A DNA stretch of 64,000 bases, from assembly GCF_021284765.1 (NCBI RefSeq), contig NZ_CP089924.1, positions 558,001 to 622,000 of the forward strand, given 5' to 3'. Positions 30,321 to 48,428 of this stretch are shown one piece after another. The notes under the pieces were generated by a model. The model ran no database searches, was not told where the DNA came from, and saw only the letters and a program-made list of their open reading frames with translations. A program made the translations under genes and the position numbers. Numbering within the stretch: the first letter of the stretch is position 1; each line of letters begins with the position of its first letter. Source of the DNA: Lysobacter sp. 5GHs7-4 (GTDB taxonomy: Bacteria > Pseudomonadota > Gammaproteobacteria > Xanthomonadales > Xanthomonadaceae).

Positions 30321-31979
30321 TCAGCATCGGAAGCGCTCCGGTTCGCGCATGCGGTAGCGCTCGGCCAGGGCCGGTCGCGCGTCGGCGGGCACGCGCGGGT
30401 CGTGCTCGATGCGGTAGGGGTGGGCGTCCCATTTGTGGAAGCAGGACTGCCAGTACTCGAAGGTGCGCAGGTCGTCCGGCGTGCCCCAGCACAGGTAGTG
30501 GTCGACCTCGAACACGCGGCAGTTGAGGCCGGCGGCGACGGCGTCGTTGATGCAGCTGTCGACGTAGAACTCGCCGTTGACGCGGCCGTCGCGCGCGATC
30601 ATCGCCTCGGCGGCGGCGGCGAAATCGCCGGCGCGACGGAAGGTGAAGGTGCCCAGCACGATCGGGTCGCGCAGCGGGTCCGACAGCGGCTGCTTCACCG
30701 ACACCGACAGCACGCGGCCGTCGACCTCGTCGACCCAGCCATAGTGCGTGGGCCGACGCGCCGCGCCCGGATAGCCGCGCGCGACCCACACGATCACGTC
30801 CACGTCCTCGTCGTCCAGCAGCGCCGACAGCGCCTGCGCGTCGAACACCGCGCCGTTGTCGCAGGCGCCGATGGTCAGCGGCTGCGCGGGGTCCAGGCCG
30901 TCCAGCCCGAGCAGGCAGGTGCGCGCCTGGCCGTCGGTCACGCGTTCCAGATCGACCAGGGCGCAGCCGGGGAAGCGCGCGCGCAAGGCCTCGGCGATGC
31001 CCTGCGCGCCGTCCAGGTCGCGGCGTTGCACGAACACGCGCCGCGCCGGTTCGGGCAGATCGCGCGCGGCCTGCACCACCATCGGCTCGCCCGACACCGC
31101 GATCAGCGGCTTGGGTTCGCGGTAGCCCTCGCTGGCGAAGCGCGCGCCCAATCCGGCCATCGGCACCATCACCGCGCCGTGCTGGCGCGGCGGCGTTTGC
31201 GCGCGCGCCGGATCGCCCAGGCGCCGGAACGCGTCGGACCAGTAGCGGTATTCCTCCAGATCCTGCGGCGTGCCCCACTGCATGAAGTGGTTGAGTTCGT
31301 AGACCGCCACGCAGGCGCCGTCTTCCAGCAGCGGCTTGTAGGCCAGGCTCACGTAGTACTCGCCGCCCAGGCTCAGATCCGGGCGTGCGACGCAGCGCTC
31401 GAAGGCCGCGCGCATCAGCGCGGCGGACTTGAAGTAGTAGCTGCCGCTGGACGCGTACTCGCGCGTGGGCTGGTCGGTGTAGGGCTGCTTTTCCTGGATG
31501 TCGAGCACGCGCGCGCCGTCGGTGCGCACGTAGGCGTAGTTGGTCGAGCCCATCATGTGCGGATGGAAGCCGGTGTAGCACGGGATCGCGCCGTCGCAGC
31601 CGCTGTCGCGCACGTAAGCCTTGAAGTCGCGGTAGTCCCAGGCGCAGGAGAAATCGCAGTAGTTGACGATGGTGGGCGCGCTGGGGTCCAGCAGATCGAC
31701 CGCCTGCAGCACCGCGTGCACCGGCCCCAGTTTGTGCGGCTCGATGCCGAGCACGCGGCCGCTTGGGCAGATCTGCGCCAGCTGTTCGGCCATGCGGTAG
31801 TCGTCGCGCTGCAGGTGGTCGCGGTTGCACACGAACACGAAGTCGGTCTCGCCCGGAAACAGGTCGACCACATGGGCGATGATCGGTTTGCCGTCGACCT
31901 CGATCAGCGGCTTGGGCACGCGGTAGCCGGCGCGGCGGAAGCGCTCTCCGAAACCTGACATGGGGACGACGATCTGCAT
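30321..31979 (-). CDS. Tandem (double) sugar-phosphate nucleotidyltransferase
   Basis: 552 aa made of two nucleotidyltransferase-like halves. The first has VVPMSGFGERFRRAGY and PKPLIEVDGKPII near residue 5, then VNYCDFSCAWDYRDF. The second, starting near residue 270, has MVPMAGLGARFASEGY and PKPLIAVSGEPMV and later GACDNGAVFDAQ. Each half also ends with matching ELNHFMQWGTPQDLEEYRYW and EVDHYLCWGTPDDLRTFEYW motifs. Both halves keep the GxGxRF loop and the PKPLI lysine, so both may be active. I know no standard enzyme with this duplicated design. Confidence 0.85.
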   Translation of the reverse strand: MQIVVPMSGFGERFRRAGYRVPKPLIEVDGKPIIAHVVDLFPGETDFVFVCNRDHLQRDDYRMAEQLAQICPSGRVLGIEPHKLGPVHAVLQAVDLLDPSAPTIVNYCDFSCAWDYRDFKAYVRDSGCDGAIPCYTGFHPHMMGSTNYAYVRTDGARVLDIQEKQPYTDQPTREYASSGSYYFKSAALMRAAFERCVARPDLSLGGEYYVSLAYKPLLEDGACVAVYELNHFMQWGTPQDLEEYRYWSDAFRRLGDPARAQTPPRQHGAVMVPMAGLGARFASEGYREPKPLIAVSGEPMVVQAARDLPEPARRVFVQRRDLDGAQGIAEALRARFPGCALVDLERVTDGQARTCLLGLDGLDPAQPLTIGACDNGAVFDAQALSALLDDEDVDVIVWVARGYPGAARRPTHYGWVDEVDGRVLSVSVKQPLSDPLRDPIVLGTFTFRRAGDFAAAAEAMIARDGRVNGEFYVDSCINDAVAAGLNCRVFEVDHYLCWGTPDDLRTFEYWQSCFHKWDAHPYRIEHDPRVPADARPALAERYRMREPERFRC

Positions 31980-32016
31980 GGGCTCCTTCCGTGGCGTCGT
32001 GCGGCGGTGATGCGGT

Positions 32017-33051
32017 TCAGTGCCCCGGCCGCGACAGCGCGCGGCGATAGGCTTCGGCTTCCCAGTCCACCAGCGCGGCGACATCCTCATCGCCCAGATA
32101 GACCAACGCTTCATCGCCGCGCAGGCGCAAGGCGACCAGGACCAGGCACAACAGCATGGCCTGCGCGCCGGCCGACAGGCCGGGGGCGACCAGCACGCCG
32201 GCGCCGGGCAGCAGCGCGAACGCGGGCGCGACGCCGCCGGCCGCGACGCAGCGCGCGAACGCGTCGGACAAGGCGTCCGCGCCGTCCAGCACCGCCGCGC
32301 GCGCGCCCAGGAACACCGCGTGATCCGGATACAGCGCGCCGTCGCGCGCGACCGCCAGCGCGGCCGCGTCGGTGGCCAGCGCGTGCACGCGCGGATCGCG
32401 CGGCAGCTCCCAATTCAGGTCGTTGACTGCGTACAGGCGCGCTAGATCGGGCGCGGCGCTCGCGCGTTCGGGCAGGGCCAGGCGGCGTTCGACCTCGCCC
32501 AGCAGGGCCTCGGCCGCGGCGCAGTCGCGCGCGCCCACCACCAGGCCGTGATTGGCCAGCACCAACACGTCGGCGTCGCGCTCGCGCAAGGCCTCGCGCA
32601 CCGCCTGGGTGAGCGGGTAGCCCGGGCGTCGGTACGGCACCCAGGCCCAATTCAGTCCCTGCAACAAAACACTTAGACGCGTGCGCGCATCCGCGCGTAC
32701 CGCCCAGGCGATGGTGTTGACCGAATGCACGTGCGCGACCACCGGATGCGGCAACAAGGCGTGCAGCGAGGTCTCGATCGACGGCCGCAACGCATGCGCG
32801 GCGCCCAGCCGCGCCAGACGCGACTCGCCGTCGGCGTGGCCCAGCGCGGCGCGTGCCTCGTCCAGCGGCAAGGGCACGAAGATGTCGCGCTCGCGCGCCT
32901 GCGCGAGCCAGGTGCCGGAGGCCTTGACCCACAAGGTGCCGTCTTGTTTGACAGACGTGTTACCGCCGCCGCCCTGGACCAGCAGAGGATCGGCGCCGAT
33001 CCGCGCGGACCATGCGATCAAGGCGTCGAGCGCGGCCGCAATAGCGCCCAT
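32017..33051 (-). CDS. Class II aldolase/adducin family protein
   Basis: 344 aa from ATG at 33051 (GTG 3 nt upstream is an alternative). The first ~200 residues carry the class II aldolase pattern: QGGGGNTSVKQDG, LWVKASGT, HPVVAHVHSVNT (metal ligands) and VLVLANHGLVVGA. The C-terminal ~130 residues are of a related, less conserved type. In this family it splits or modifies a sugar phosphate with a divalent metal. It is the first gene of the minus-strand operon and lies divergent from the NRPS genes. Confidence 0.87.
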   Translation of the reverse strand: MGAIAAALDALIAWSARIGADPLLVQGGGGNTSVKQDGTLWVKASGTWLAQARERDIFVPLPLDEARAALGHADGESRLARLGAAHALRPSIETSLHALLPHPVVAHVHSVNTIAWAVRADARTRLSVLLQGLNWAWVPYRRPGYPLTQAVREALRERDADVLVLANHGLVVGARDCAAAEALLGEVERRLALPERASAAPDLARLYAVNDLNWELPRDPRVHALATDAAALAVARDGALYPDHAVFLGARAAVLDGADALSDAFARCVAAGGVAPAFALLPGAGVLVAPGLSAGAQAMLLCLVLVALRLRGDEALVYLGDEDVAALVDWEAEAYRRALSRPGH

Positions 33052-33452: not shown

Positions 33453-36400
33453 ATGAGTGATATCGACCCGCGTATCGCCGAGCTATCGCCTGCGAAACGC
33501 GAACTGCTGCGTCAGTTGAGCGCGCGTCAGCGCGCCGGCCAGAACCGGATTCAGGCGCGTGCGCGGCCTGCGCGCATTCCGCTGACCTTCGGCCAGCGCC
33601 GCCTGTGGTGGCTGGACCGGTTCCTGCCCGGCATGACCGCCTACAACCTGCCGGTCGGCCTGTGGCTGGACGGCGAGCTCGATCGCGGCGCGTTGCGCGC
33701 GGCGCTGCAGGCGCTGCTGGACCGCCACGAAACCCTGCGCACGGTGTTCCTGTCGCAGGACGGCGAGCCGTACCAGCACATCCTCGATCGCATCGATTTG
33801 CCGTGGCGCGAATTGAACGCGCAGGGCGAAAACGCCGACGAACGCGAGGCCGATGCGCTGCGTCTGGCGCGCGCGGAAACCGCGCGCAGCTTCGATCTCA
33901 GCCGCGACGCGATGCTGCGCGCCAGCCTGATCGCGACGGCGCCGCAGCGCCATCTGCTGGTGCTGGGTTTCCATCACATCGCCATCGACGGCTGGTCGAC
34001 CAATGCACTGCTGGAAGAGCTGCAGGCCGGCTACGACGCGTTGCGTGCGGGCCGCGCGGCCGACACCGCCGCGCCGCCGCTGCAGATCGCCGACGTCGCG
34101 CTGTGGCAGAACGAAACCTTGGGCGGCGACGGGCTGCAGCCGCAACTGGATTACTGGAGCCAGCGCCTGGACGGCGCGCTCACCACGCTGGACCTGCCGG
34201 CCGACCGGCCGCGTCCGGCCGCGCAGAGTTTCCGCGGCGCGCTGTACCGCAGCGAAGTGCCGGCGGCGGTCTACGAACAACTGGAACGGCTGGCGCGCGA
34301 GCGTCAGGCGACGCTGTCGATGGTGTTCCTGGCCGCCTATCAGGCGCTGCTGTCGCGCTACACCGCGCAGGACGACATCACCGTCGGCATGGGCGTGGCC
34401 GGGCGCGCGCGGGTCGAGCTGGAGCCGGTGATCGGCTTCTTCGTCAACACCCTGCCGATGCGCGCGCGCATCGACGGCGATCCCAGCTTCGCGCAGTTGC
34501 TGGCGCAGGTGCGCGAGGGCGTGCTGGGCGCGATGGAACATGCCGACGCGCCGCTGGACCGCATCTTGGAAAGTCGCCGCCTGCCGCGTTCGGCCAGCCA
34601 CACGCCGTTCGCGCAGGCGCTGTTCTTCTTCCAGAACTATCCCGCGCACCGGCTGTCCATGGACGGTCTGCAGCTGCGTCAGGCGCATCTGATGGACGTC
34701 GCGCACGGTACCGCGCAGGGCGATCTGAGCCTGTTCGTGAACCAGCACAGCGCGCGCGAGCTGATGTTGGAATACAGCACCGATCTGTTCGACGCCGCGC
34801 GCATCGAACGCCTGTGCGGGCACCTGCTGCGCCTGCTGGCCGCGGCCGCGGCGACGCCGGACGCGCCGCTGAGTTCGCTGGAGCTGCTGACGCCCGGCGA
34901 GCGCGAGGAGCTCGCGCGCTGGAACGACACCGCGCGCGAATTGCCGGCCGATCCCACCATCGCCGCGCAGATCCAGGCCCAGGTCGAGCGCACGCCGGAC
35001 GCGATCGCGCTGCGCTGCGGCACGCGCGAGGTGAGCTATCGCGAACTCGACCGTCGCGCCAACGCGCTCGCGCACGAGCTGCGCGCGGCCGGCGTCGGCC
35101 GCGGCGAGCTGGTCGGCCTGTACGTGGAACGCACGCCGGAAATGCTGATCGGCCTGGTCGGCATCCTCAAGGCCGGCGGCGCCTATGTGCCGCTGGATCC
35201 GACCTATCCCGCCGACCGTCTGGCCTACATGCTGGAAGCCTCGGATGCGCGCGTGCTGGTCAGCCAGCGCGCACTCGCCGACAGCCTGCCCGGCGCTGTC
35301 GCCACGGTGATCTACGCCGACGCCGATGCGGCGCTGGACGCACGCGCCGAACGCGCGCCCGACGGCGGCGCGCAGGCGCGCGATCCGGCCTACGTGATCT
35401 TCACCTCCGGCTCCACCGGCAAGCCCAAGGGCGTGGAGATCCAGCAGCGCTCGGCGGTCAATCTGCTGCGCTCGGTCGCGCGCGAGCCGGGCCTGGCGCG
35501 CGGCCAGGTGCTGTGCGCGATCAGCACGCTGTCGTTCGACATCGCCCTGTTCGAATTGGTGCTGCCGCTGACCGTGGGCGCCACCATCCTACTGGTCGAC
35601 CGCGACACCGCGCGCGACGGCCTGCGCCTGCGCCGCCTGGTCGACGACACCGCGATCGACGTGATGCAGGCCACGCCCGCGACCTGGCGCATGCTGCTGG
35701 AGCTGGGCTGGAGCGGCAAGGCCGGCATCAAGATCATCTCCACGGGCGAAGCGCTGCCGCGCGAGCTCGCCGACCGCCTGCTGCCGTGCGCGAACGAGCT
35801 GTGGAATCTCTACGGTCCCACCGAGACCACGGTGTATTCGGCGCTGTGCCGGGTGCATGCCGGCAGCGGCCCGATCCTGGTCGGCAAGCCCGTCGACAAC
35901 ACCCAGATCCACATCGTCGACCGCCACATGAACCTGCTGCCGGCCGGCGTGCCGGGCGAGCTGCTGATCGGCGGCGACGGACTGGCCAGCGGCTACCGCG
36001 GCCGCCCGGACCTGACCGCGGAGAAGTTCATCGCCGATCCCTTCGGCGCGCCCGGCGGCCGTCTCTACCGCAGCGGCGATCTCGCGCTGTGGCGCCGCGA
36101 CGGCACCATCGAGGTGATCGGCCGCATCGACCACCAGATCAAGCTGCGCGGTTTCCGCATCGAGCTGGGCGAAATCGAATCGGTGCTCGCGCAATTCCCC
36201 GACGTGACGCAGGCGGTGGTGCATTGCCGCGAGGACCGGCCCGGCGACAAGCGCCTGGTCGCCTATGTCACCGCCAACGGGCAGGCGCCGGCCACGGCCG
36301 CGCTGCGCGATCATCTCAAGGCGGCGCTGCCCGACTACATGGTGCCCAGCGCGTTCGTGGTGCTGGAACGCTTCCCGCTCACGCCCAACGGCAAGGTCGA

Positions 36401-36800
36401 CCGGCGCGCGCTGCCGGCGCCGGAAGCCGTCGCCGGCGGCGACGACGAGGCCTACGACGCGCCGGTCACGCCGGAAGAGCAGTCCCTGGCGGCGATCTGG
36501 CAGCAGCTGCTGGGTGCGCCGCGCATCGGCCGCGGCGACAACTTCTTCGACCTCGGCGGCCATTCGCTGCTGGCCACGCGCCTGCTGGCGCGCATCGAGC
36601 AGCAGTACGGCGTGGAACTGCCGCTGCGTGTGCTGTTCGAGGACGCGACCCTGGAGCGTCTGGCCGCGCGCGTCGCCGACGCCTGCAACGACCTGGCGCC
36701 GGACGATCTGGAAAGTCTGCTGGCGAGCCTGGAACACCTCAGCGATGAGGAAGCCAGCGCGCGCCTGGCCGCAACGCTGCCGGGGGGCGGCCATGGCTGA
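33453..36800 (+). CDS. NRPS module 1 (C-A-T)
   Basis: 1115 aa from ATG at 33453. The condensation domain spans about 40-470, with active motif HHIAIDG at 174-180. The adenylation domain spans about 500-985, with FTSGSTGKPKG at 650 and the invariant Lys in PNGKVDRRALP. The carrier domain has DNFFDLGGHS with Ser1038 as the phosphopantetheine site. A short C-terminal helix follows (LLASLEHLSDEEASARL), like a docking tail. Specificity residues read by hand as D-I-F-Q-I-T-L-V-Y, which I cannot match to a standard amino acid. It starts with a C domain although it is the first gene, so an acyl starter unit is possible. It overlaps the next gene by 8 nt. Confidence 0.93.
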   Translation: MSDIDPRIAELSPAKRELLRQLSARQRAGQNRIQARARPARIPLTFGQRRLWWLDRFLPGMTAYNLPVGLWLDGELDRGALRAALQALLDRHETLRTVFLSQDGEPYQHILDRIDLPWRELNAQGENADEREADALRLARAETARSFDLSRDAMLRASLIATAPQRHLLVLGFHHIAIDGWSTNALLEELQAGYDALRAGRAADTAAPPLQIADVALWQNETLGGDGLQPQLDYWSQRLDGALTTLDLPADRPRPAAQSFRGALYRSEVPAAVYEQLERLARERQATLSMVFLAAYQALLSRYTAQDDITVGMGVAGRARVELEPVIGFFVNTLPMRARIDGDPSFAQLLAQVREGVLGAMEHADAPLDRILESRRLPRSASHTPFAQALFFFQNYPAHRLSMDGLQLRQAHLMDVAHGTAQGDLSLFVNQHSARELMLEYSTDLFDAARIERLCGHLLRLLAAAAATPDAPLSSLELLTPGEREELARWNDTARELPADPTIAAQIQAQVERTPDAIALRCGTREVSYRELDRRANALAHELRAAGVGRGELVGLYVERTPEMLIGLVGILKAGGAYVPLDPTYPADRLAYMLEASDARVLVSQRALADSLPGAVATVIYADADAALDARAERAPDGGAQARDPAYVIFTSGSTGKPKGVEIQQRSAVNLLRSVAREPGLARGQVLCAISTLSFDIALFELVLPLTVGATILLVDRDTARDGLRLRRLVDDTAIDVMQATPATWRMLLELGWSGKAGIKIISTGEALPRELADRLLPCANELWNLYGPTETTVYSALCRVHAGSGPILVGKPVDNTQIHIVDRHMNLLPAGVPGELLIGGDGLASGYRGRPDLTAEKFIADPFGAPGGRLYRSGDLALWRRDGTIEVIGRIDHQIKLRGFRIELGEIESVLAQFPDVTQAVVHCREDRPGDKRLVAYVTANGQAPATAALRDHLKAALPDYMVPSAFVVLERFPLTPNGKVDRRALPAPEAVAGGDDEAYDAPVTPEEQSLAAIWQQLLGAPRIGRGDNFFDLGGHSLLATRLLARIEQQYGVELPLRVLFEDATLERLAARVADACNDLAPDDLESLLASLEHLSDEEASARLAATLPGGGHG

Positions 36801-39800
36801 ACTCAATCAACGTCTGGCCGGCTTGTCGCCGGAGAAACGCGCGTTGCTGCTGCAACAGCTGGCCAAGCAGTCGCCGGCCGCGCCGCGCAGCGAGATCGGC
36901 CGGCGCGCGCGCCCGGCGCGGATTCCGCTGTCGTACGCGCAGCAGCGCTTGTGGATACTCGATCAGCTCGATCCGGGATCGGCGGCGTACAACGTGCCGA
37001 CCACGATGTGGCTGCAGGGGCCGCTGGACGAGGCCGCGTTCGCGCGCGCGCTGGACGAAATCCAGCGTCGCCACGAAGTGCTGCGCACCACCATCGCCAG
37101 CGACGAGCAGGGCCCGCAACAAGTGGTGCAGCCGCCGTCGCCGGTGCCGATCGATCGCCAGGACGTGCGTGCGCTGCCGGCATCGGAACGCGAGGCGGCG
37201 GCGTTCGCGCATGCGCGCGCCGAGGCCGCGCGCGCGTTCGATCTGGCGCGCGGTCCCTTGCTGCGCGCGCTGCTGGTGCGGGTGGACGACGACCGCCATC
37301 TGTTCACCCTCAACGCCCACCACATCGCCGTCGACGGCTGGTCGCTGGGGCTGTTGAATCAGGAATTGCGCCAACTCTACGGCGCCTACCACGCCGGCCA
37401 GCCCTCGCCGCTGGCGGAACTGCCGGTGCAATACGTCGATTACGCGCTGTGGCAGCGCGAGCTGATGGAAGGCCCGACCCTGCAGGCGCAGCTGGCGTAC
37501 TGGCGGCAACGCCTGGCCGGCCCGCTGCCGGTGCTGGAGCTGCCGGGCGACCGCCCGCGCCCGCCGGTGCAGAGCTACGGCGGCGACGTGCTGCGCAGCA
37601 CCTTGGCGCCATCGACCTGGGAAGGCATCAAGCGGCTGAGCCGGCAGGAAGGCGCGACGCCGTTCATGGCCGTGCTGGCGGCGTACCAGACGCTGCTGAT
37701 GCGTTACTCCGGCCAGCACGATCTGGTGGTCGGCGTGGGCGTGGCCAACCGCCGCCGCGAGGAACTCGAATCGCTGGCCGGCTTCTTCGTCAACACCCTG
37801 GCCCTGCGCAACGACCTGTCCGGCAATCCGCGTTTCCGCGAGCTGCTGGCGCAGGTCAAGGACAGCACCCTGGGCGCGTACTCGCATCAGGATCTGCCGG
37901 CCGAACGCCTGATCGAAGACCTGCAGCCGGAACGTTCGCTGAGCCATGCGCCGCTGTTCCAGGCGATGCTGTTCTTCCAGAACTTCCCCAACGACGAAGT
38001 CGACCTGGCCGGCCTGACCCTGGCGCCGGTGGACTTCGACCAGATCAATCCGGGTACCGCGCGTTCGGATCTGGCGTTGTTCGCCAGCGAGCAGGACGGC
38101 AGCCTGGCGCTGTTCCTCGAATACGCCAGCGACCTGTTCGACGCGGCCACCGTCGAGGCCTTCTCCGCGCACTTCCAGCAACTGCTGGCGTCGATCGCGC
38201 AGGATCCGGATGCGCGATTGGGCGAGCTGGACATCCTCGATCCGGCGCAGCGTCAACGCTTGATCGCGGAATGGAACGCCACCGATCTGGATGTGCCGCT
38301 CAACCTGCCGCTGCATCGTCTGTTCGAGCAGCAGGCGCAGCGCCGGCCCGATGCGATCGCGGTCGAGTGCGGCCCGCAACGTCTCAGTTACGCCGAACTC
38401 GATGCCCAGGCCGACGCGCTCGCGCGTGCGCTGGCCGCGCGCGGCGCCGGACCGGGCGATCTGGTCGGCCTGTTCGTCGAACGTTCGCCGCGCATGCTGG
38501 TCGGCCTGCTCGGCATCCTCAAGGCCGGCGCCGCCTATGTGCCGATGGATCCCAGCTATCCGGCCGAACGCCTGGGCTACATGCTCGAAGACGCGCGCGC
38601 GCGCTGGATCGTGAGCGAGCGCGGTCTGCAGTCGCAGCTGCCGGCCAGCGATTGCGAGCTGCTGTGGCTGGACGAGCTGGACGCCGCGCCCGGCACGCGC
38701 GTCGACAGCGGCGTCGGCCCGGAAGACCTGGCCTACGTGATCTTCACTTCCGGCTCTACCGGCCGGCCCAAGGGCGTGCAGATTCCGCACCGCGCGGTGG
38801 TCAATTTCCTCGCCGCGGTCGCGCGCGAACCGGGCCTGAGCGAACGCGACACGATGTGCGCGGTCACCACGCTGTCGTTCGACATCGCCGTGCTGGAACT
38901 GCTGCTGCCGCTGCAGGTCGGCGCGCGCATCGTGCTGGCCGACCGCGCCACCGCCGCCGACGGCGCCGCGCTGGCGCGCCTGCTGGACCACAGCGGCGCC
39001 ACGGTGATGCAGGCCACGCCCGCGACCTGGCGCATGCTGCTGGACGCCGGCTGGGCCGGCCGTGCGCAGCTGCGCATGCTGTGCGGCGGCGAAGCGCTGG
39101 CGCGCGAACTGGCGACGCGCCTGCTGCCCTGCGGTGCGGAGCTGTGGAATCTCTACGGTCCCACCGAAACCACGGTGTGGTCGGCGGTCGAGCGCGTCGG
39201 CGCCGGCGATGCCGCGATCACCATCGGCCGGCCGCTGGCCAACACGCAGCTGCACATCGTCGACGCACGCGGCCAGCTGGTGCCGGTCGGCGTGCCCGGC
39301 GAGCTGCTGATCGGCGGCTTGGGTGTGGCGCGCGGCTATCTGGCGCGGCCGGACCTCACCGCCGAAAAATTCGTGCCCGACCGTTACGGCCCGAACCGCG
39401 GCGCGCGCCTGTACCGCACCGGCGATCTGGCGCGGCGCCTGCGCGACGGCCGCATCGAGGTGCTCGGCCGCATCGATCATCAGGTCAAGCTGCGCGGCTT
39501 CCGCATCGAGCTGGGCGAAATCGAATCCGTGCTGGCCGATCATCCGCAGGTGCGGCAGGCGGTGGTGATCTGCCGCGAGGACCGGCCCGGCGACAAGCGC
39601 CTGGTCGCCTACACCCTCGGCGAGGCCGATGCCGCGCAGCTGCGCGCGCACGCGCGCCAGCGCCTGCCCGAATACATGCTGCCTTCGGCCTATGTGAGCC
39701 TGGCGCAGTACCCGCTGACGCCCAACGGCAAGGTCGACCGCAAGGCGCTGCCGGCGCCGGACGCCGACGCGCTGGAGGCGCGCGCCTACGTCGCGCCGCG

Positions 39801-40128
39801 CAACGGCGAGGAAGAAACGCTGGCGCGCTTGTGGGCCGAAGTGCTGGGGCTGGAGCGGGTCGGCATCCACGACGACTTCTTCGACCTGGGCGGCCACTCG
39901 CTGCTGGCCACGCAGTTGATCACGCGCGCGCAGAAGGCCTTCGGCGGCGAGATCGCGCTGCGCACCTTGTTCGAGGCGCCGACCGTGGCCGGCTTCGCCG
40001 AACTGTTGCTGCGCCAGCGCATGGACGGCGTCGACGCCGACGCGCTGGCCGGCATGCTCGACCAACTCGAAGGTCTGTCCGACGAGGACATCCAATTGTT
40101 GCTGGCCGGCGAGGGCGCCGAATCGTGA
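36793..40128 (+). CDS. NRPS module 2 (C-A-T), predicted glycine
   Basis: 1111 aa. The C domain has HHIAVDG at 176-182. The A domain has FTSGSTGRPKG at 651. The hand-read specificity code is D-I-L-Q-L-G-L-V-W, one change from the known glycine code DILQLGLIW, so glycine is the best prediction. The carrier domain has FFDLGGHSLLATQL with Ser1036. It ends with a docking-like LDQLEGLSDEDIQLLL. There is no epimerisation domain. The start overlaps the previous stop by 8 nt, so the synthetases are translationally coupled. Confidence 0.92.
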   Translation: MAELNQRLAGLSPEKRALLLQQLAKQSPAAPRSEIGRRARPARIPLSYAQQRLWILDQLDPGSAAYNVPTTMWLQGPLDEAAFARALDEIQRRHEVLRTTIASDEQGPQQVVQPPSPVPIDRQDVRALPASEREAAAFAHARAEAARAFDLARGPLLRALLVRVDDDRHLFTLNAHHIAVDGWSLGLLNQELRQLYGAYHAGQPSPLAELPVQYVDYALWQRELMEGPTLQAQLAYWRQRLAGPLPVLELPGDRPRPPVQSYGGDVLRSTLAPSTWEGIKRLSRQEGATPFMAVLAAYQTLLMRYSGQHDLVVGVGVANRRREELESLAGFFVNTLALRNDLSGNPRFRELLAQVKDSTLGAYSHQDLPAERLIEDLQPERSLSHAPLFQAMLFFQNFPNDEVDLAGLTLAPVDFDQINPGTARSDLALFASEQDGSLALFLEYASDLFDAATVEAFSAHFQQLLASIAQDPDARLGELDILDPAQRQRLIAEWNATDLDVPLNLPLHRLFEQQAQRRPDAIAVECGPQRLSYAELDAQADALARALAARGAGPGDLVGLFVERSPRMLVGLLGILKAGAAYVPMDPSYPAERLGYMLEDARARWIVSERGLQSQLPASDCELLWLDELDAAPGTRVDSGVGPEDLAYVIFTSGSTGRPKGVQIPHRAVVNFLAAVAREPGLSERDTMCAVTTLSFDIAVLELLLPLQVGARIVLADRATAADGAALARLLDHSGATVMQATPATWRMLLDAGWAGRAQLRMLCGGEALARELATRLLPCGAELWNLYGPTETTVWSAVERVGAGDAAITIGRPLANTQLHIVDARGQLVPVGVPGELLIGGLGVARGYLARPDLTAEKFVPDRYGPNRGARLYRTGDLARRLRDGRIEVLGRIDHQVKLRGFRIELGEIESVLADHPQVRQAVVICREDRPGDKRLVAYTLGEADAAQLRAHARQRLPEYMLPSAYVSLAQYPLTPNGKVDRKALPAPDADALEARAYVAPRNGEEETLARLWAEVLGLERVGIHDDFFDLGGHSLLATQLITRAQKAFGGEIALRTLFEAPTVAGFAELLLRQRMDGVDADALAGMLDQLEGLSDEDIQLLLAGEGAES

Positions 40129-40159
40129 GCCAGCGTCGCATCCAGGGAAGGGAGTGCGC

Positions 40160-44664
<4,505 letters not shown>

Positions 44665-44668
<4 letters not shown>

Positions 44669-45996
44669 ACCGCTACGCCGGCCTGCGCGATTTCCTGCTG
44701 ATCTGGGTCGGCCAGCTGGTGTCGGGCGTGGGCTCGCGCCTGACTTCGTTCGCGCTGGGCATCTGGGTGTACCAGAGCACCGGTTCGACCACGCAGTTCG
44801 CGCTGATCTTCGTCGCGATGGCGGTGCCGGCCTTGCTGATCTCGCCGATCGCCGGCGCCCTGGTCGACCGCTGGGACCGGCGCCGCACCATGATCGTCTG
44901 CGACGCCGCTTCGGCACTGACCATGTTCGCGCTGGCGGCGCTGTACGCGACCGACACGCTGGCGCTGTGGCACGTCTACGCCGGCGTCGGCATCTCGGCG
45001 ATCGCCAACGCTTTCCTGCAGCCGGCCTACGCCGCCAGCATTCCCTTGCTGGCCAGCCAGGAACAGCTCACGCGCGTGAACGGTCTGGTGCAGACCGGAT
45101 TCGCCGTGGCCCAGGTCGGTGGCCCCCTGCTGGCCGGCGTGCTGGTCAGCACGATCTCGATGCAGGGCGTGCTGATCGTCGACGCGCTGACCTTCGTGGT
45201 GGGCGTGGTCGCGCTGCTGTTCGCGCGCGTGCCGCGTCCGCAGCGCAGCGAGCCGGCCGAGGACAGCCTGTGGCGCGAGGCCGCCACCGGCTTCCGCTAC
45301 GTGCACGAGCGCCCCGGCCTGTACGGCCTGCTGCTGGTGTTCGGCGCCACCAACTTTTTGTTCGGCATCGCCAGCATCGCGATCACGCCGCTGGTGCTGT
45401 CCTTCGCCGACGCCGGCCTGCTGGGCGTGCAGATGGCGGTCGGCGGTTGCGGTCTGCTGCTGGGCGGCCTGGCCATGAGCACCTGGGGCGGACCGCGCCG
45501 GCGCGTGCACGGCGTGCTCGGTTTTTCGCTGGCCGCCGGCGTGCTGCTGGCCGTGCACGGCCTGGCGCCTTCGTTCGCGCTGGTGCTGGTGGCCGGTTTC
45601 GGCTTCTTCCTGACGTTACCTGTGCTCAACGCGTCGAACGCCGCGCTGTGGCAAAGCAAAGTCCCGGCCGATCTGCAGGGCCGCTGCTTCGCGATCCAGC
45701 GCGTGCTGTCGGAAGCGGCGATGCCGCTGGGCTACTGCCTGGCCGGTCCGCTGGCCGAACGCGTGTTCGAGCCTTTGATGGCGCCCGGCGGCGCCCTGGC
45801 CGCATCGGTCGGGGCCTGGATCGGCGTCGGTCCGGGCCGCGGGCTGGGCCTGATGTTCATTGTCTTGGGAGTCCTGATGACGGCGGTCGCGGCCAGCGCC
45901 TATGCGGTGCGCGCGATCCGCCGGGTCGAGGACGAATTGCCCGATGCGCCGATCCTGGCGACGGGTCCGGCGGCGCAGGTCAGTGCCGCGGCTTGA
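44665..45996 (+). CDS. MFS transporter, probable product exporter
   Basis: 443 aa from GTG at 44665 (GTGA overlap with the NRPS stop, GAGGAGGAA ribosome site). About 10-12 hydrophobic helices. LVDRWDRRRTMIVCD is the MFS loop 2-3 motif, and QPAYAASIPLLASQEQLTRVNG is typical of MFS exporters found in NRPS/siderophore clusters. It probably exports the peptide product or gives self-protection. Confidence 0.9.
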
Positions 45997-46014
45997 GTTT
46001 CAGAGGGAGGCGTC

Positions 46015-46224
46015 ATGCAAGGAGAAGAGACGGATCTCGGCGCGCATCGCGTGCTGGTCAATCACGAAGACCAGTACTCGATCCTGCCGGTGGCGTATGC
46101 GATTCCGCAGGGCTGGCGCGATGCCGGCTTCGAGGGATCGAAGGACGAATGCCTGACCCACATCCGTGGGCGATGGACCGATATGCGCCCGCTCAGCGTG
46201 CGCGACCCGGCCAGCGGCGGATAA
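46015..46224 (+). CDS. MbtH-like protein
   Basis: 69 aa. The family pattern is [37 protein letters not shown]. The Trp usually found in the first motif (NHExQYSxWP) is Leu here (SILP), while GW and WTDMRP are kept. MbtH proteins help A domains fold and activate amino acids. Its presence supports active A domains in this operon. AGGGAGG is 7 nt before ATG. Confidence 0.95.
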
Positions 46225-46246
46225 GTCAGGGACTAGGAGCAAGGCG

Positions 46247-47101
46247 ATGAGCCCAGACAACGATTCCTTCCAACTGCCCGACCCGGATGCGGCGATGATG
46301 GCCGGCCGCACCCATGTCGAGAGCGCCGGCGCGGCCGCGCGCGGCCAGCTGCTGCGCGCCTCGGACGTCGAGCGCAACCAGCACGCCAGCGCGCCGCTGC
46401 CCACCATCGTGAGCTGGGTGCGCGAGTTTCTCGCGCAACCGCATCCGAACCTGGGACGCACCGGCCCGGTGTGTCCGTTCACGCCGCTGGCGCTGGGCCT
46501 GGACACGATCTGGCTCACCGAGGTCGTCGACCCGGATCCCGATCCGGAGCGCATGGCCGAGCTGATCGCCCATTACCGCGATCTGTTCCTGGAGATCGAG
46601 CCGCGTTCCGGCGCGGCGGCGGTCAACAAGTCGATCCTGATCGTGTTCCCCAACCTGGGGCCCGACGGCGCCAGCGTGGTCGACCGCATCCAGGCCGAAC
46701 ACAAGGGCGGCTTCGTCGAGCTGGGTCTGATGCTGGGCGAGTTCCATGCGCGCAACGCCAGCCCTGGCCTGCGCAATCCGGATTTCTTCCCGCTGCGCAG
46801 CCCGGTGCCGATGCTGGCGATCCGGCATATGGTCGAATCCGACCTGCCGTTCCTGCGCCGCGACATCGATGCGCCGGAAGTGCGCGCGGCGTATCTGCGT
46901 TCCTACCTGCGCCGGCTCGGTCCCAACCTGCGCCGCAACAATTTCGAACAGGCGATCGAAGCCCTGGTCGAGGCCGAACTGCAGCTGCGCCTGCGCGGCC
47001 TGCAGAGCGAATCGCCGCGCCTGAGCGCGGTGTCGCGCCCGGTCGCGCGCGCCAACGCGCGCAGCGCCCGCAGCACCGCCGGAACCGCGCTCGATGACTG
47101 A
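46247..47101 (+). CDS. Unrecognised protein of the NRPS operon
   Basis: 284 aa from ATG at 46247 with AGGAGCAAGG upstream. No membrane segment or signal. A conserved-looking core HPNLGRTGPVCPFTPLALGL and KSILIVFPNLGPDGASVVDRIQ, and a region with GEFHARNASPGLRN. The VCPF motif reminds me of a family annotated as DUF6875 in other NRPS clusters, but I cannot confirm it. It overlaps the flavoprotein start by 8 nt and is 22 nt after mbtH, so it is likely part of the same transcript and may tailor a substrate. Confidence 0.72.
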   Translation: MSPDNDSFQLPDPDAAMMAGRTHVESAGAAARGQLLRASDVERNQHASAPLPTIVSWVREFLAQPHPNLGRTGPVCPFTPLALGLDTIWLTEVVDPDPDPERMAELIAHYRDLFLEIEPRSGAAAVNKSILIVFPNLGPDGASVVDRIQAEHKGGFVELGLMLGEFHARNASPGLRNPDFFPLRSPVPMLAIRHMVESDLPFLRRDIDAPEVRAAYLRSYLRRLGPNLRRNNFEQAIEALVEAELQLRLRGLQSESPRLSAVSRPVARANARSARSTAGTALDD

Positions 47102-48428
47102 GGCCTCCGCAACCGCGCGCGTGGCCATCGTCGGCGGCGGCCTCGCCGGCTCGCTGCTGGCGCTGCGCCTGGCCGCGCTGGGCCATGGCGTCGACGTCTA
47201 CGAGCGCCGCCCCGATCCGCGCGTCAGCGGCGCCGAAGGCGGCCGCTCGATCAACCTGGGCCTGTCCAAGCGCGGCATCCAGGCGCTGACCGAAGCGCAA
47301 CTGATCGACGAGGTCATGCCGACCTGCGTGACCATGGCCGGCCGCGTGATCCATGCGCCCGACGGCAGCACGCGCTACCAGCCGTACGGCAAGGACCGCG
47401 GCGAAGTCCTGCACTCGATCGACCGCAACGAACTCAACCGCCTGCTGCTGGATCGCGCCGAACGCCATCCGCAGGTGCGCCTGCACTTCGATCATCGCCT
47501 GGTCGGTGTCGACAAGACCGCGCGCGAACTGGAATTCGAGCACGCCGGCGCGCGCCTGCGCGTGCGCCCGGACTGGGTGGTCGGCGCCGACGGCGCGTTC
47601 TCGCGCACGCGTCAGGAAATGCAGCGCGGCGAGCGCGCCGACTACCACCAGGAATACCTGGAGTGGGGCTACAAGGAACTCACCCTGAAGCCGCTGGCCG
47701 ACGGCAGTTCGGCGATCGAGCTGGAAGCGCTGCACGTGTGGCCGCGCAGCCACGGCCTGTTCGTCTCGCACCCCAACCGCGACGGCTCGCATACGCTGAC
47801 CCTGTTCCTGCCGTTCGAGGGCCCCGACAGTTTCGCCACCACCCGCGACGAAGACGACGTGCGCGCCTTGTTCACCAAGTATTTCCCCGACCTGCTGCCG
47901 CTGCTGCCGCAGCTGGTGGAGGAATGGATGGCGCACCCGGTCGGGGCGCTGGTGACCACGCGCACCGCGCCGTGGAGCCGCGAAGACTGGATGGTGCTGG
48001 TCGGCGACGCCTGCCACGCCGTGTATCCGTTCTATGGTCAGGGCATGAACTCGGCGTTCGAGGATTGTTCGGCGCTGATGGCCGCGCTGGCGCGGCATCC
48101 GGGCCGGCGCGCGGACGCGTTCGCCGATTACGAACGTTCGCGGCGCCCGCACACCGACACCCTGGCCGAGCTGTCCAAGGCCAACTTCGTCGAGCTGCGG
48201 CAGAAGGTGCAGTCGCCGTGGTTCCTGGCGCGCAAACGCCTGGACGTGAGCTTGAACCGCCTGCTGCCCAAGACCTGGCTGCCGCTGTACACCATGATCG
48301 CGCACACCACGATGCCGTACGGCGATGCGTTGGCGCGCGCGCGCCGGCAGGAACGCATCCTGGTCGGCGCCGGTGCCGGCGCGCTGGCGGTGGCCGCGGT
48401 CGGCGCCTGGCTGATGCTGGGCGCCTGA
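47094..48428 (+). CDS. kmo: FAD-dependent monooxygenase of the kynurenine 3-monooxygenase family
   Basis: 444 aa. VAIVGGGLAGSLLALRLAAL (FAD-binding) near residue 10, then RSINLGLSKRGIQAL and VVGADGAFSRTRQEM, and the second FAD motif GDACHAVYPFYGQGMNSAFED. These are the KMO-specific features, and the C-terminus has a hydrophobic helix (about 425-444) as in membrane-associated KMOs. It hydroxylates kynurenine to 3-hydroxykynurenine. Xanthomonads make NAD via this route, so it could be a primary gene. Its 8-nt overlap with the NRPS-operon gene argues for a link to the cluster. Confidence 0.88.
   Translation: MTEASATARVAIVGGGLAGSLLALRLAALGHGVDVYERRPDPRVSGAEGGRSINLGLSKRGIQALTEAQLIDEVMPTCVTMAGRVIHAPDGSTRYQPYGKDRGEVLHSIDRNELNRLLLDRAERHPQVRLHFDHRLVGVDKTARELEFEHAGARLRVRPDWVVGADGAFSRTRQEMQRGERADYHQEYLEWGYKELTLKPLADGSSAIELEALHVWPRSHGLFVSHPNRDGSHTLTLFLPFEGPDSFATTRDEDDVRALFTKYFPDLLPLLPQLVEEWMAHPVGALVTTRTAPWSREDWMVLVGDACHAVYPFYGQGMNSAFEDCSALMAALARHPGRRADAFADYERSRRPHTDTLAELSKANFVELRQKVQSPWFLARKRLDVSLNRLLPKTWLPLYTMIAHTTMPYGDALARARRQERILVGAGAGALAVAAVGAWLMLGA

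What the first reader, a model, noticed from the sequence alone, without database searches (positions are those of the whole stretch)
33453..48428. Three-module NRPS with reductive release, apparently undescribed gene set
C-A-T, C-A-T and C-A-T-R single-gene synthetases with tight coupling (8-nt, 32-nt and GTGA overlaps), then an MFS exporter, an MbtH-like protein, an unknown protein and a KMO-like flavoprotein. The final reductase predicts a short peptide aldehyde, alcohol or cyclic imine, a type of product often active against proteases. The combination of genes is not one I can name.
Basis: partly seen in the sequence, partly recalled or inferred. Interest (0 to 1): 0.75.

Follow-up and report, generated by a model that had tools for sequence, protein, structure and literature searches.

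The report
Oxidised-tryptophan NRPS cassette with reductive release
A Lysobacter gene cluster that probably makes a short peptide ending in an oxidised tryptophan-type residue and releases it by reduction; the same oxidising enzymes and the same residue-selecting pocket recur together in distant bacteria, so the unknown product may be a widespread one.

Summary
In detail: 33453-48428 encodes C-A-T, C-A-T and C-A-T-R synthetases, an MFS exporter, an MbtH-like protein, a DUF6875 protein and a KMO-like flavoprotein. The set is not a one-off. DUF6875 and this KMO type occur together in 16 of 20 Lysobacter genomes and are both absent from 4. The last adenylation code, DAGDMGHVC, is identical in the 16 Lysobacter clusters, 2 Rugamonas loci and 19 of 20 fetched actinobacterial loci (one differs at one position); those 20 loci all have the KMO-like gene, an R domain and an MFS gene. 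Three Lysobacter clusters keep DUF6875, KMO-like and the code but lack the R domain, so the oxidases track the building block, not the release. The KMO-like enzymes keep the amino-acid clamp but share a Leu-to-His pocket change (42 of 42 rows). Best reading: DUF6875 plus the flavoprotein make a ring-oxidised tryptophan-type amino acid, loaded last after a probable glycine and released by reduction. Product and activity are unknown; MIBiG could not be searched.

The parts
33453..36800 (+). NRPS1, C-A-T (1115 aa); C about 33576-34913, A about 34974-36395 (code DIFQITLVY, substrate not called), T about 36483-36674
   Evidence: Pfam; code from motif-anchored alignment
36793..40128 (+). NRPS2, C-A-T (1111 aa); C about 36922-38262, A about 38323-39732 (code DILQLGLVW, glycine-like by recalled table), T about 39817-40008
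   Evidence: Pfam; code
40160..44668 (+). NRPS3, C-A-T-R (1502 aa); C about 40325-41650 (HHIVTDAWS), A about 41717-43174 (code DAGDMGHVC), T about 43262-43450, thioester reductase about 43574-44635 (GYNQSK)
   Evidence: Pfam, TIGR01746 302 bits, motifs, code
44665..45996 (+). MFS exporter, 443 aa
   Evidence: PF07690 120.5 bits; TIGR00900 244.6 bits, below its cut-off of 319.6
46015..46224 (+). MbtH-like protein, 69 aa
   Evidence: PF03621 65.9 bits
46247..47101 (+). DUF6875 ('cytochrome P422' family) protein, 284 aa, probable heme oxygenase of tryptophan or a tryptophan-like amino acid; Cys76 invariant in the alignment made here
47094..48428 (+). KMO-like flavoprotein, 444 aa; residues equivalent to PfKMO R84, Y98, N369, Y404 kept, L226 replaced by His
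   Evidence: PF01494 103.7 bits; alignment to solved KMOs; 42-row alignment

Best explanation
The cluster makes a short peptide whose last residue is a dedicated, ring-oxidised tryptophan-type amino acid (here Z). The DUF6875/P422 heme enzyme oxidises free L-tryptophan, most likely adding a hydroxyl to the benzo ring (C7 by analogy with ZigI). The KMO-like flavoprotein then adds oxygen next to that activated position of the free amino acid. NRPS3's A domain (code DAGDMGHVC) selects Z. NRPS1 adds an unassigned residue, NRPS2 probably glycine, NRPS3 adds Z, and the R domain reduces the thioester, giving an X-Gly-Z aldehyde or alcohol, or a product cyclised from the aldehyde; the MFS protein exports it. 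Shown by sequence: gene content, domains, co-conservation of DUF6875, KMO-like and the A code, retention of the KMO amino-acid clamp, intact C and R motifs. Inferred: heme binding here, Trp as substrate, the positions oxidised, the order of the two oxidations, Gly in module 2, export, and the final structure. My confidence is 0.6 for 'the two oxidases make the residue loaded by the DAGDMGHVC domain' and about 0.35 for a 7-hydroxy or dihydroxy tryptophan in particular.
For: Co-occurrence in the genus: 16 of 20 genomes have both DUF6875 and a KMO-like protein at 71-100% identity, 4 of 20 have neither; all 20 keep a second KMO at 42-44%. In the window's genome that second KMO lies near a kynureninase and a tryptophan dioxygenase is present elsewhere, so the cluster copy is not the housekeeping one. 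Code DAGDMGHVC in the window and 15 of 15 other Lysobacter clusters, 2 of 2 Rugamonas loci, 3 of 3 Saccharothrix loci and 19 of 20 fetched actinobacterial loci L112-L131, the other being DAGDTGHVC (one Saccharothrix contig is in both sets). Over 39 distinct rows 8 of 9 code positions are invariant against 49 of 199 A-core columns (hypergeometric P 6e-5); without L119 it is 9 of 9 against 50 of 199 (P 2e-6). Three Lysobacter clusters (L029, L033, L034) have no R domain on that module but keep DUF6875, KMO-like and the code. A close relative of this A domain was found in 18 of 297 genomes and all 18 also have DUF6875. KMO clamp residues kept in 42 of 42 rows with L226 to His in 42 of 42. An O-methyltransferase-like sequence lies downstream of the R synthetase in 18 of 20 actinobacterial loci by tblastn (Pfam PF00891 checked on two, L049 and L126), as expected for a phenolic residue. 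The DUF6875 model's nearest fold is AglA, a Cys-ligated heme hydroxylase. PMC13307353 reports DUF6875 proteins as heme-binding tryptophan oxidisers and expects ZigI to be a C7 hydroxylase.
Against: No product or enzyme assay exists for this cluster. The P422 preprint is not held, so its residue rules for C7 hydroxylases could not be applied. Foldseek gives no match at E <= 0.001 (best 0.019 to AglA) and there is no sequence match to AglA. Asp at code position 278 is also seen in codes for polar or basic amino acids (recalled), so the code alone does not say 'aromatic'. Clusters in related genomes share ancestry, so counts and P values are not independent evidence. The 20 actinobacterial loci were picked for high DUF6875 scores, so they are one subfamily; 13 more distant DUF6875 loci have neither the code nor an R domain. 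The 18-of-297 search scored only 5 candidates a genome and missed at least 7 genomes known to carry the code, so it cannot exclude diverged DAGDMGHVC domains without DUF6875. NRPS1 starts with a C domain and no loading module is seen, so what it accepts is unexplained. No O-methyltransferase relative was found in the Lysobacter or Rugamonas loci.
Confidence: 0.6

Rival explanations
1. Kynurenine route: the KMO-like enzyme makes 3-hydroxykynurenine (or a close relative) from the cell's kynurenine pool and NRPS3 loads that; DUF6875 supplies or further oxidises it.
For: The KMO-like protein is nearest to true KMOs among solved structures (E 4e-86) and keeps all four substrate-clamp residues in 42 of 42 rows. 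The genome has tryptophan dioxygenase and kynureninase genes.
Against: A housekeeping-type KMO already exists in all 20 Lysobacter genomes, so a second source of 3-hydroxykynurenine would be redundant; L226 to His and H320 to Tyr/Phe in the ring pocket point to another ring; DUF6875 would have no clear role.
Confidence: 0.2
2. Saframycin-type logic with tryptophan: C-A-T / C-A(Gly)-T / C-A-T-R, where the R domain makes a dipeptidyl aldehyde that the last C domain joins to the oxidised tryptophan by a Pictet-Spengler step, giving a beta-carboline type alkaloid.
For: Same module layout with glycine-like module 2 and a terminal C-A-T-R as recalled for SfmA-B-C; a heme enzyme that hydroxylates an aromatic amino acid has the same place as SfmD (recalled). 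Layout shown.
Against: No acyl-ligase loading module. The last C domain keeps an ordinary HHxxxD motif. Three related Lysobacter clusters place Z inside a longer peptide without an R domain on that module, which needs no Pictet-Spengler step.
Confidence: 0.12
3. Ordinary protease-inhibitor peptide aldehyde with a basic last residue; DUF6875 and the KMO-like enzyme decorate another residue or the finished peptide.
For: Asp at code position 278 resembles codes for polar or basic substrates (recalled); reductive release is typical of argininal-type inhibitors (recalled).
Against: The code goes with the two oxidases and not with release. The KMO-like enzyme keeps the clamp for a free amino-acid carboxylate.
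Confidence: 0.08

Closest known systems
Saframycin/safracin/ecteinascidin synthetases (SfmA-B-C type; recalled)
   Same: Three modules, glycine-like second module, terminal C-A-T-R, a heme enzyme that hydroxylates an aromatic amino acid
   Different: No acyl-ligase loading domain here; tryptophan-linked oxidases instead of tyrosine ones; last A-domain code differs as far as I recall
zig cluster of Micromonospora zingiberis (zigralone; PMC13307353, passages)
   Same: DUF6875 enzyme (ZigI) in tryptophan-derived chemistry, followed by a methyltransferase (ZigH) on the new hydroxyl, as the O-methyltransferase in the actinobacterial relatives may do
   Different: Terpenoid pathway; no NRPS and no KMO-like enzyme named in the passages read
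AglA (YqcI/YcgG family; PMC12866846, passages)
   Same: Closest fold to the DUF6875 model; small Cys-ligated heme hydroxylase
   Different: Arginine-type substrate, no detectable sequence similarity, different family
Kynurenine 3-monooxygenase (Pseudomonas fluorescens KMO, 5fn0)
   Same: Same protein family; residues equivalent to R84, Y98, L213, F238, F319, N369, Y404 kept
   Different: L226 to His, I224 to Val and H320 to Tyr/Phe in all 42 rows of cluster copies
Pyrrolobenzodiazepine clusters (porothramycin: search listing of PMC4194701 only; rest recalled)
   Same: NRPS with reductive release and KMO-type chemistry from tryptophan
   Different: No kynureninase among the cluster genes and no anthranilate-type loading module here; three modules instead of two

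Membership tests
NRPS with reductive (R-domain) release | C, A, T and terminal thioester-reductase domains above cut-off with catalytic motifs | tested here: met
   Pfam and TIGR01746; HHxxxD and YxxxK motifs
NRPS with reductive (R-domain) release | Aldehyde or alcohol product | not testable with these tools
   No chemistry available
DUF6875 / cytochrome P422 | PF21780 match above gathering score | tested here: met
   About 201 bits against 24.5
DUF6875 / cytochrome P422 | Conserved heme-ligand residue | tested here: inconclusive
   Cys76 invariant in 45 of 45 rows; that it is the ligand is inferred from AglA
DUF6875 / cytochrome P422 | Oxidation of L-tryptophan | not testable with these tools
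   Reported for the family in PMC13307353 passages; not shown for this protein
YqcI/YcgG heme hydroxylases (AglA) | Same fold | tested here: inconclusive
Kynurenine 3-monooxygenase | Amino-acid clamp residues R84, Y98, N369, Y404 | tested here: met
   42 of 42 rows; roles of the positions recalled
Kynurenine 3-monooxygenase | Ring-pocket residues L226 and H320 as in the bacterial enzyme | tested here: not met
   His at 226 in 42 of 42, Tyr (27) or Phe (15) at 320; roles recalled, and position 320 may vary among true KMOs
Saframycin-type tetrahydroisoquinoline clusters | Acyl-ligase/ACP loading module at the start | tested here: not met
   NRPS1 is C-A-T only
Saframycin-type tetrahydroisoquinoline clusters | Pictet-Spengler activity of the last C domain | not testable with these tools
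   Motif alone does not tell
Pyrrolobenzodiazepine clusters | Kynureninase and anthranilate-type first module | tested here: not met
   No kynureninase hit among the seven cluster proteins scanned, and the first module has a C domain
Le-pyrrolopyrazine (led) cluster | Six-module led synthetases of L. enzymogenes (recalled) | not tested
   led sequence not available; PMC9410377 passages report it only in L. enzymogenes among the strains compared

The most novel reading that the evidence does not exclude
A cross-phylum family of tryptophan alkaloids built by one code: P422 plus a recast KMO (L226H) turn free tryptophan into a phenolic or catechol tryptophan, the DAGDMGHVC domain reads it, and reductive release sets up ring closure of the resulting aldehyde onto the activated indole ring (for example at C4, para to a C7 hydroxyl, giving a tetrahydrobenz[cd]indole) or a Pictet-Spengler step. 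It would be a tryptophan counterpart of the saframycin logic, with an A-domain code for a residue that I do not know to have been read before.
Probability: 0.17. Interest if true: 0.8.

Novelty: new variant of a known kind. Interest (0 to 1): 0.56.

Why it matters
It ties a newly described heme-enzyme family to a concrete biosynthetic role and gives a testable three-part signature (DUF6875, KMO-like with His at 226, A-domain code DAGDMGHVC) found in Lysobacter, Rugamonas and a group of actinobacteria. If right, it adds a readable adenylation code for an oxidised tryptophan-type residue and predicts a class of mostly reductively released peptides for which my searches showed no described product. 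It can be tested with two purified oxidases and one A domain.

Tried and rejected
A protein database search for DUF6875 relatives could not be made; I used the search for related loci and whole-genome searches instead. A sequence-profile search of the PDB with the DUF6875 alignment found nothing relevant; AglA appears only by fold. ARAGORN reports a tRNA-Gly at 41656-41737 inside NRPS3; I take it as a chance match in coding sequence. The upstream gene 30321-32114 is found upstream in 12 of 12 syntenic Lysobacter loci but matches nucleotidyltransferase families, so I left it out of the cluster. A first script seemed to show that the last C domain lacks its motif in actinobacteria; the alignment shows HHxxxD in 19 of 19 rows. 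I looked for DAGDMGHVC elsewhere: 24 A domains in 25 fetched loci (20 from the four DUF6875-free Lysobacter genomes, 5 from other NRPS genes of the window's genome), none has it; these are best-scoring samples out of a far longer list. Thirteen DUF6875 loci outside the cassette (L132-L144): none shows the code or an R domain in the 12-20 kb held, two have a KMO-like gene. L051 has NRPS domains with other codes and no KMO hit. L048 has DUF6875 and a KMO-like gene, but its synthetase is cut by the contig end, so the code was not seen. The C domain of NRPS1 could not be typed as starter or ordinary from PDB similarity. A first rerun of the code count picked a wrong segment for L035 and was replaced; both missed L128, whose code is. 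One search used 18 rows that did not include L119, the one exception; one search includes it and gives the weaker P 6e-5. Whether these clusters are among the 'unknown' NRPS rows of PMC9410377 could not be checked.
Full report
WHAT IS THERE. The window lies in a 4.71-Mb, single-contig genome. Five of the same-genus genomes (G007, G011, G012, G013, G018) have contigs of the same lengths as the named records L. antibioticus HS124 and Lysobacter sp. Root690, Root76, Root916 and cf310, so I take the genus to be Lysobacter. Overlaps are 8 nt, GTGA and 8 nt; the NRPS2-NRPS3 gap is 31 nt.

THE KMO-LIKE ENZYME. It is closest to solved kynurenine 3-monooxygenases (E about 4e-86). Each of 20 Lysobacter genomes has another KMO at 42-44% identity. 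In the window's genome that gene lies close to a kynureninase gene, and a tryptophan dioxygenase gene exists. In 42 rows of cluster KMO-like proteins (41 distinct loci) the residues equivalent to PfKMO R84, Y98, N369 and Y404 are kept in 42 of 42, while L226 is His in 42 of 42, I224 is Val in 42 of 42, and H320 is Tyr (27) or Phe (15). Residue roles are recalled from the KMO literature. So the enzyme seems to hold a free amino acid by the same clamp but to meet a different, more polar ring.

THE CASSETTE. DUF6875 is in 16 of 20 genomes of the genus; the cluster-type KMO is in the same 16 (71-94% identity in the other 15) and absent from the other 4. Of the 15 loci fetched, 12 are syntenic with the window from NRPS1 to KMO-like, and 3 (L029, L033, L034) have a larger synthetase followed by MFS, DUF6875 and KMO-like. 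By tblastn MbtH is seen in 7 of the 12. In the family of the Saccharothrix genome G020, DUF6875 is in 77 of 297 genomes. I fetched 20 of the 25 best-scoring loci (L112-L131): 20 of 20 have a KMO-like gene near DUF6875, an R domain and an MFS gene, and 18 of 20 an O-methyltransferase-like sequence downstream of the R-bearing synthetase (Pfam confirmed on L049 and L126). In L117, L120 and L123 that sequence comes after the MFS gene and lies in the same open frame as a further synthetase. These 20 were picked by DUF6875 score, so they are one subfamily. Of 398 genomes of the window's phylum drawn evenly, 9 have a match and 7 one over the cut-off. Thirteen other DUF6875 loci (L132-L144) show no R domain and no such code; L138 and L144 carry a KMO-like gene.

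THE CODE. The nine pocket residues of the last A domain (positions recalled from GrsA, taken by motif-anchored alignment) are DAGDMGHVC in the window, in 15 of 15 other Lysobacter clusters, in both Rugamonas loci and in L049, L050 and L052; in L112-L131 they are the same in 19 of 20 (17, plus L129 and L130), with DAGDTGHVC in L119. Over 39 distinct rows 8 of 9 code columns and 49 of 199 A-core columns are invariant (P 6e-5); leaving out L119, 9 of 9 and 50 of 199 (P 2e-6). Actinobacterial A cores are 48-55% identical to the window's. In 297 genomes 18 have a close relative of this A domain and all 18 are among the 77 with DUF6875; that search was strict and missed at least 7 genomes whose loci carry the code. 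In the three Lysobacter clusters without an R domain the code sits in an inner module and the synthetase ends in C-A-T. This is the main argument: the two oxidases go with the code, not with the release. Module 2 has a glycine-like code in the Lysobacter three-module clusters, and 14 of 20 actinobacterial loci have a similar DILQ-type code.

HOW IT MOST LIKELY WORKS. Tryptophan is hydroxylated by the DUF6875 enzyme, the phenol so formed is oxidised further by the KMO-like enzyme as a free amino acid, NRPS3 loads it, and the chain X-Gly-Z leaves by reduction. The order, the positions and the residue X are inferred or open. What NRPS1's C domain accepts is unexplained. In L138 and L144 a KMO-like enzyme with the same His and a DUF6875 gene lie in neighbourhoods with an ATP-grasp amino-acid ligase and a cupin, L138 also with a Lys/Orn N-oxygenase and a MetRS-like protein (not every gene there was scanned). 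That fits a free amino-acid product used by different condensing enzymes; but their KMO-like proteins have His in place of Y404, so the substrate may differ.

WHAT IS KNOWN. Ten paper searches were made; those aimed at the cluster or its product showed no description of it in the listings seen. PMC9410377 (passages) lists several 'unknown' NRPS clusters in Lysobacter. MIBiG was not available. I rate it a new variant of a known kind: reductively released NRPS, with a conserved building-block cassette for which I found no description.

Noticed in passing
L138 (1227-2528, 9686-10345) and L144 (9703-10362, 15896-17233): Other DUF6875 loci that also carry a KMO-like enzyme with the same His pocket residue, beside an ATP-grasp amino-acid ligase, a cupin, a berberine-bridge-type oxidase and, in L138, a Lys/Orn N-oxygenase and a MetRS-like protein: the set resembles hydrazine (N-N bond) pathways (recalled). 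Their KMO-like proteins have His where KMO has Y404.
   Followed up: partly
L029, L033, L034: Three Lysobacter genomes have a synthetase frame of at least 4600 aa, cut at its 5' side in the stretch held, with DAGDMGHVC in an inner module and a C-A-T end without release domain, followed by MFS, DUF6875 and KMO-like genes.
   Followed up: partly
L117 1681-3721: A D-2-hydroxyacid dehydrogenase gene and a D-Ala-D-Ala-ligase-type gene side by side about 5 kb from the cassette, a pair reminiscent of glycopeptide-resistance gene sets.
   Followed up: no
window 41656-41737: ARAGORN predicts a tRNA-Gly (gcc) inside the NRPS3 coding sequence; probably a chance match.
   Followed up: no
L051 10001-10501: A Bryobacterales genome has DUF6875 beside NRPS domains with other codes (DAQALGGVT, DLFWLGCTF) and no KMO-like hit in the stretch held: perhaps a separate use of DUF6875.
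   Followed up: no
G020:C1:177310-177819 (L074, L136): A second, more distant DUF6875 gene in the same Saccharothrix genome, outside the cassette.
   Followed up: partly
L046 15877-17610 and window 30321-32114: A relative (58%) of the nucleotidyltransferase-type gene upstream of the Lysobacter cluster lies downstream of the Rugamonas cluster.
   Followed up: no
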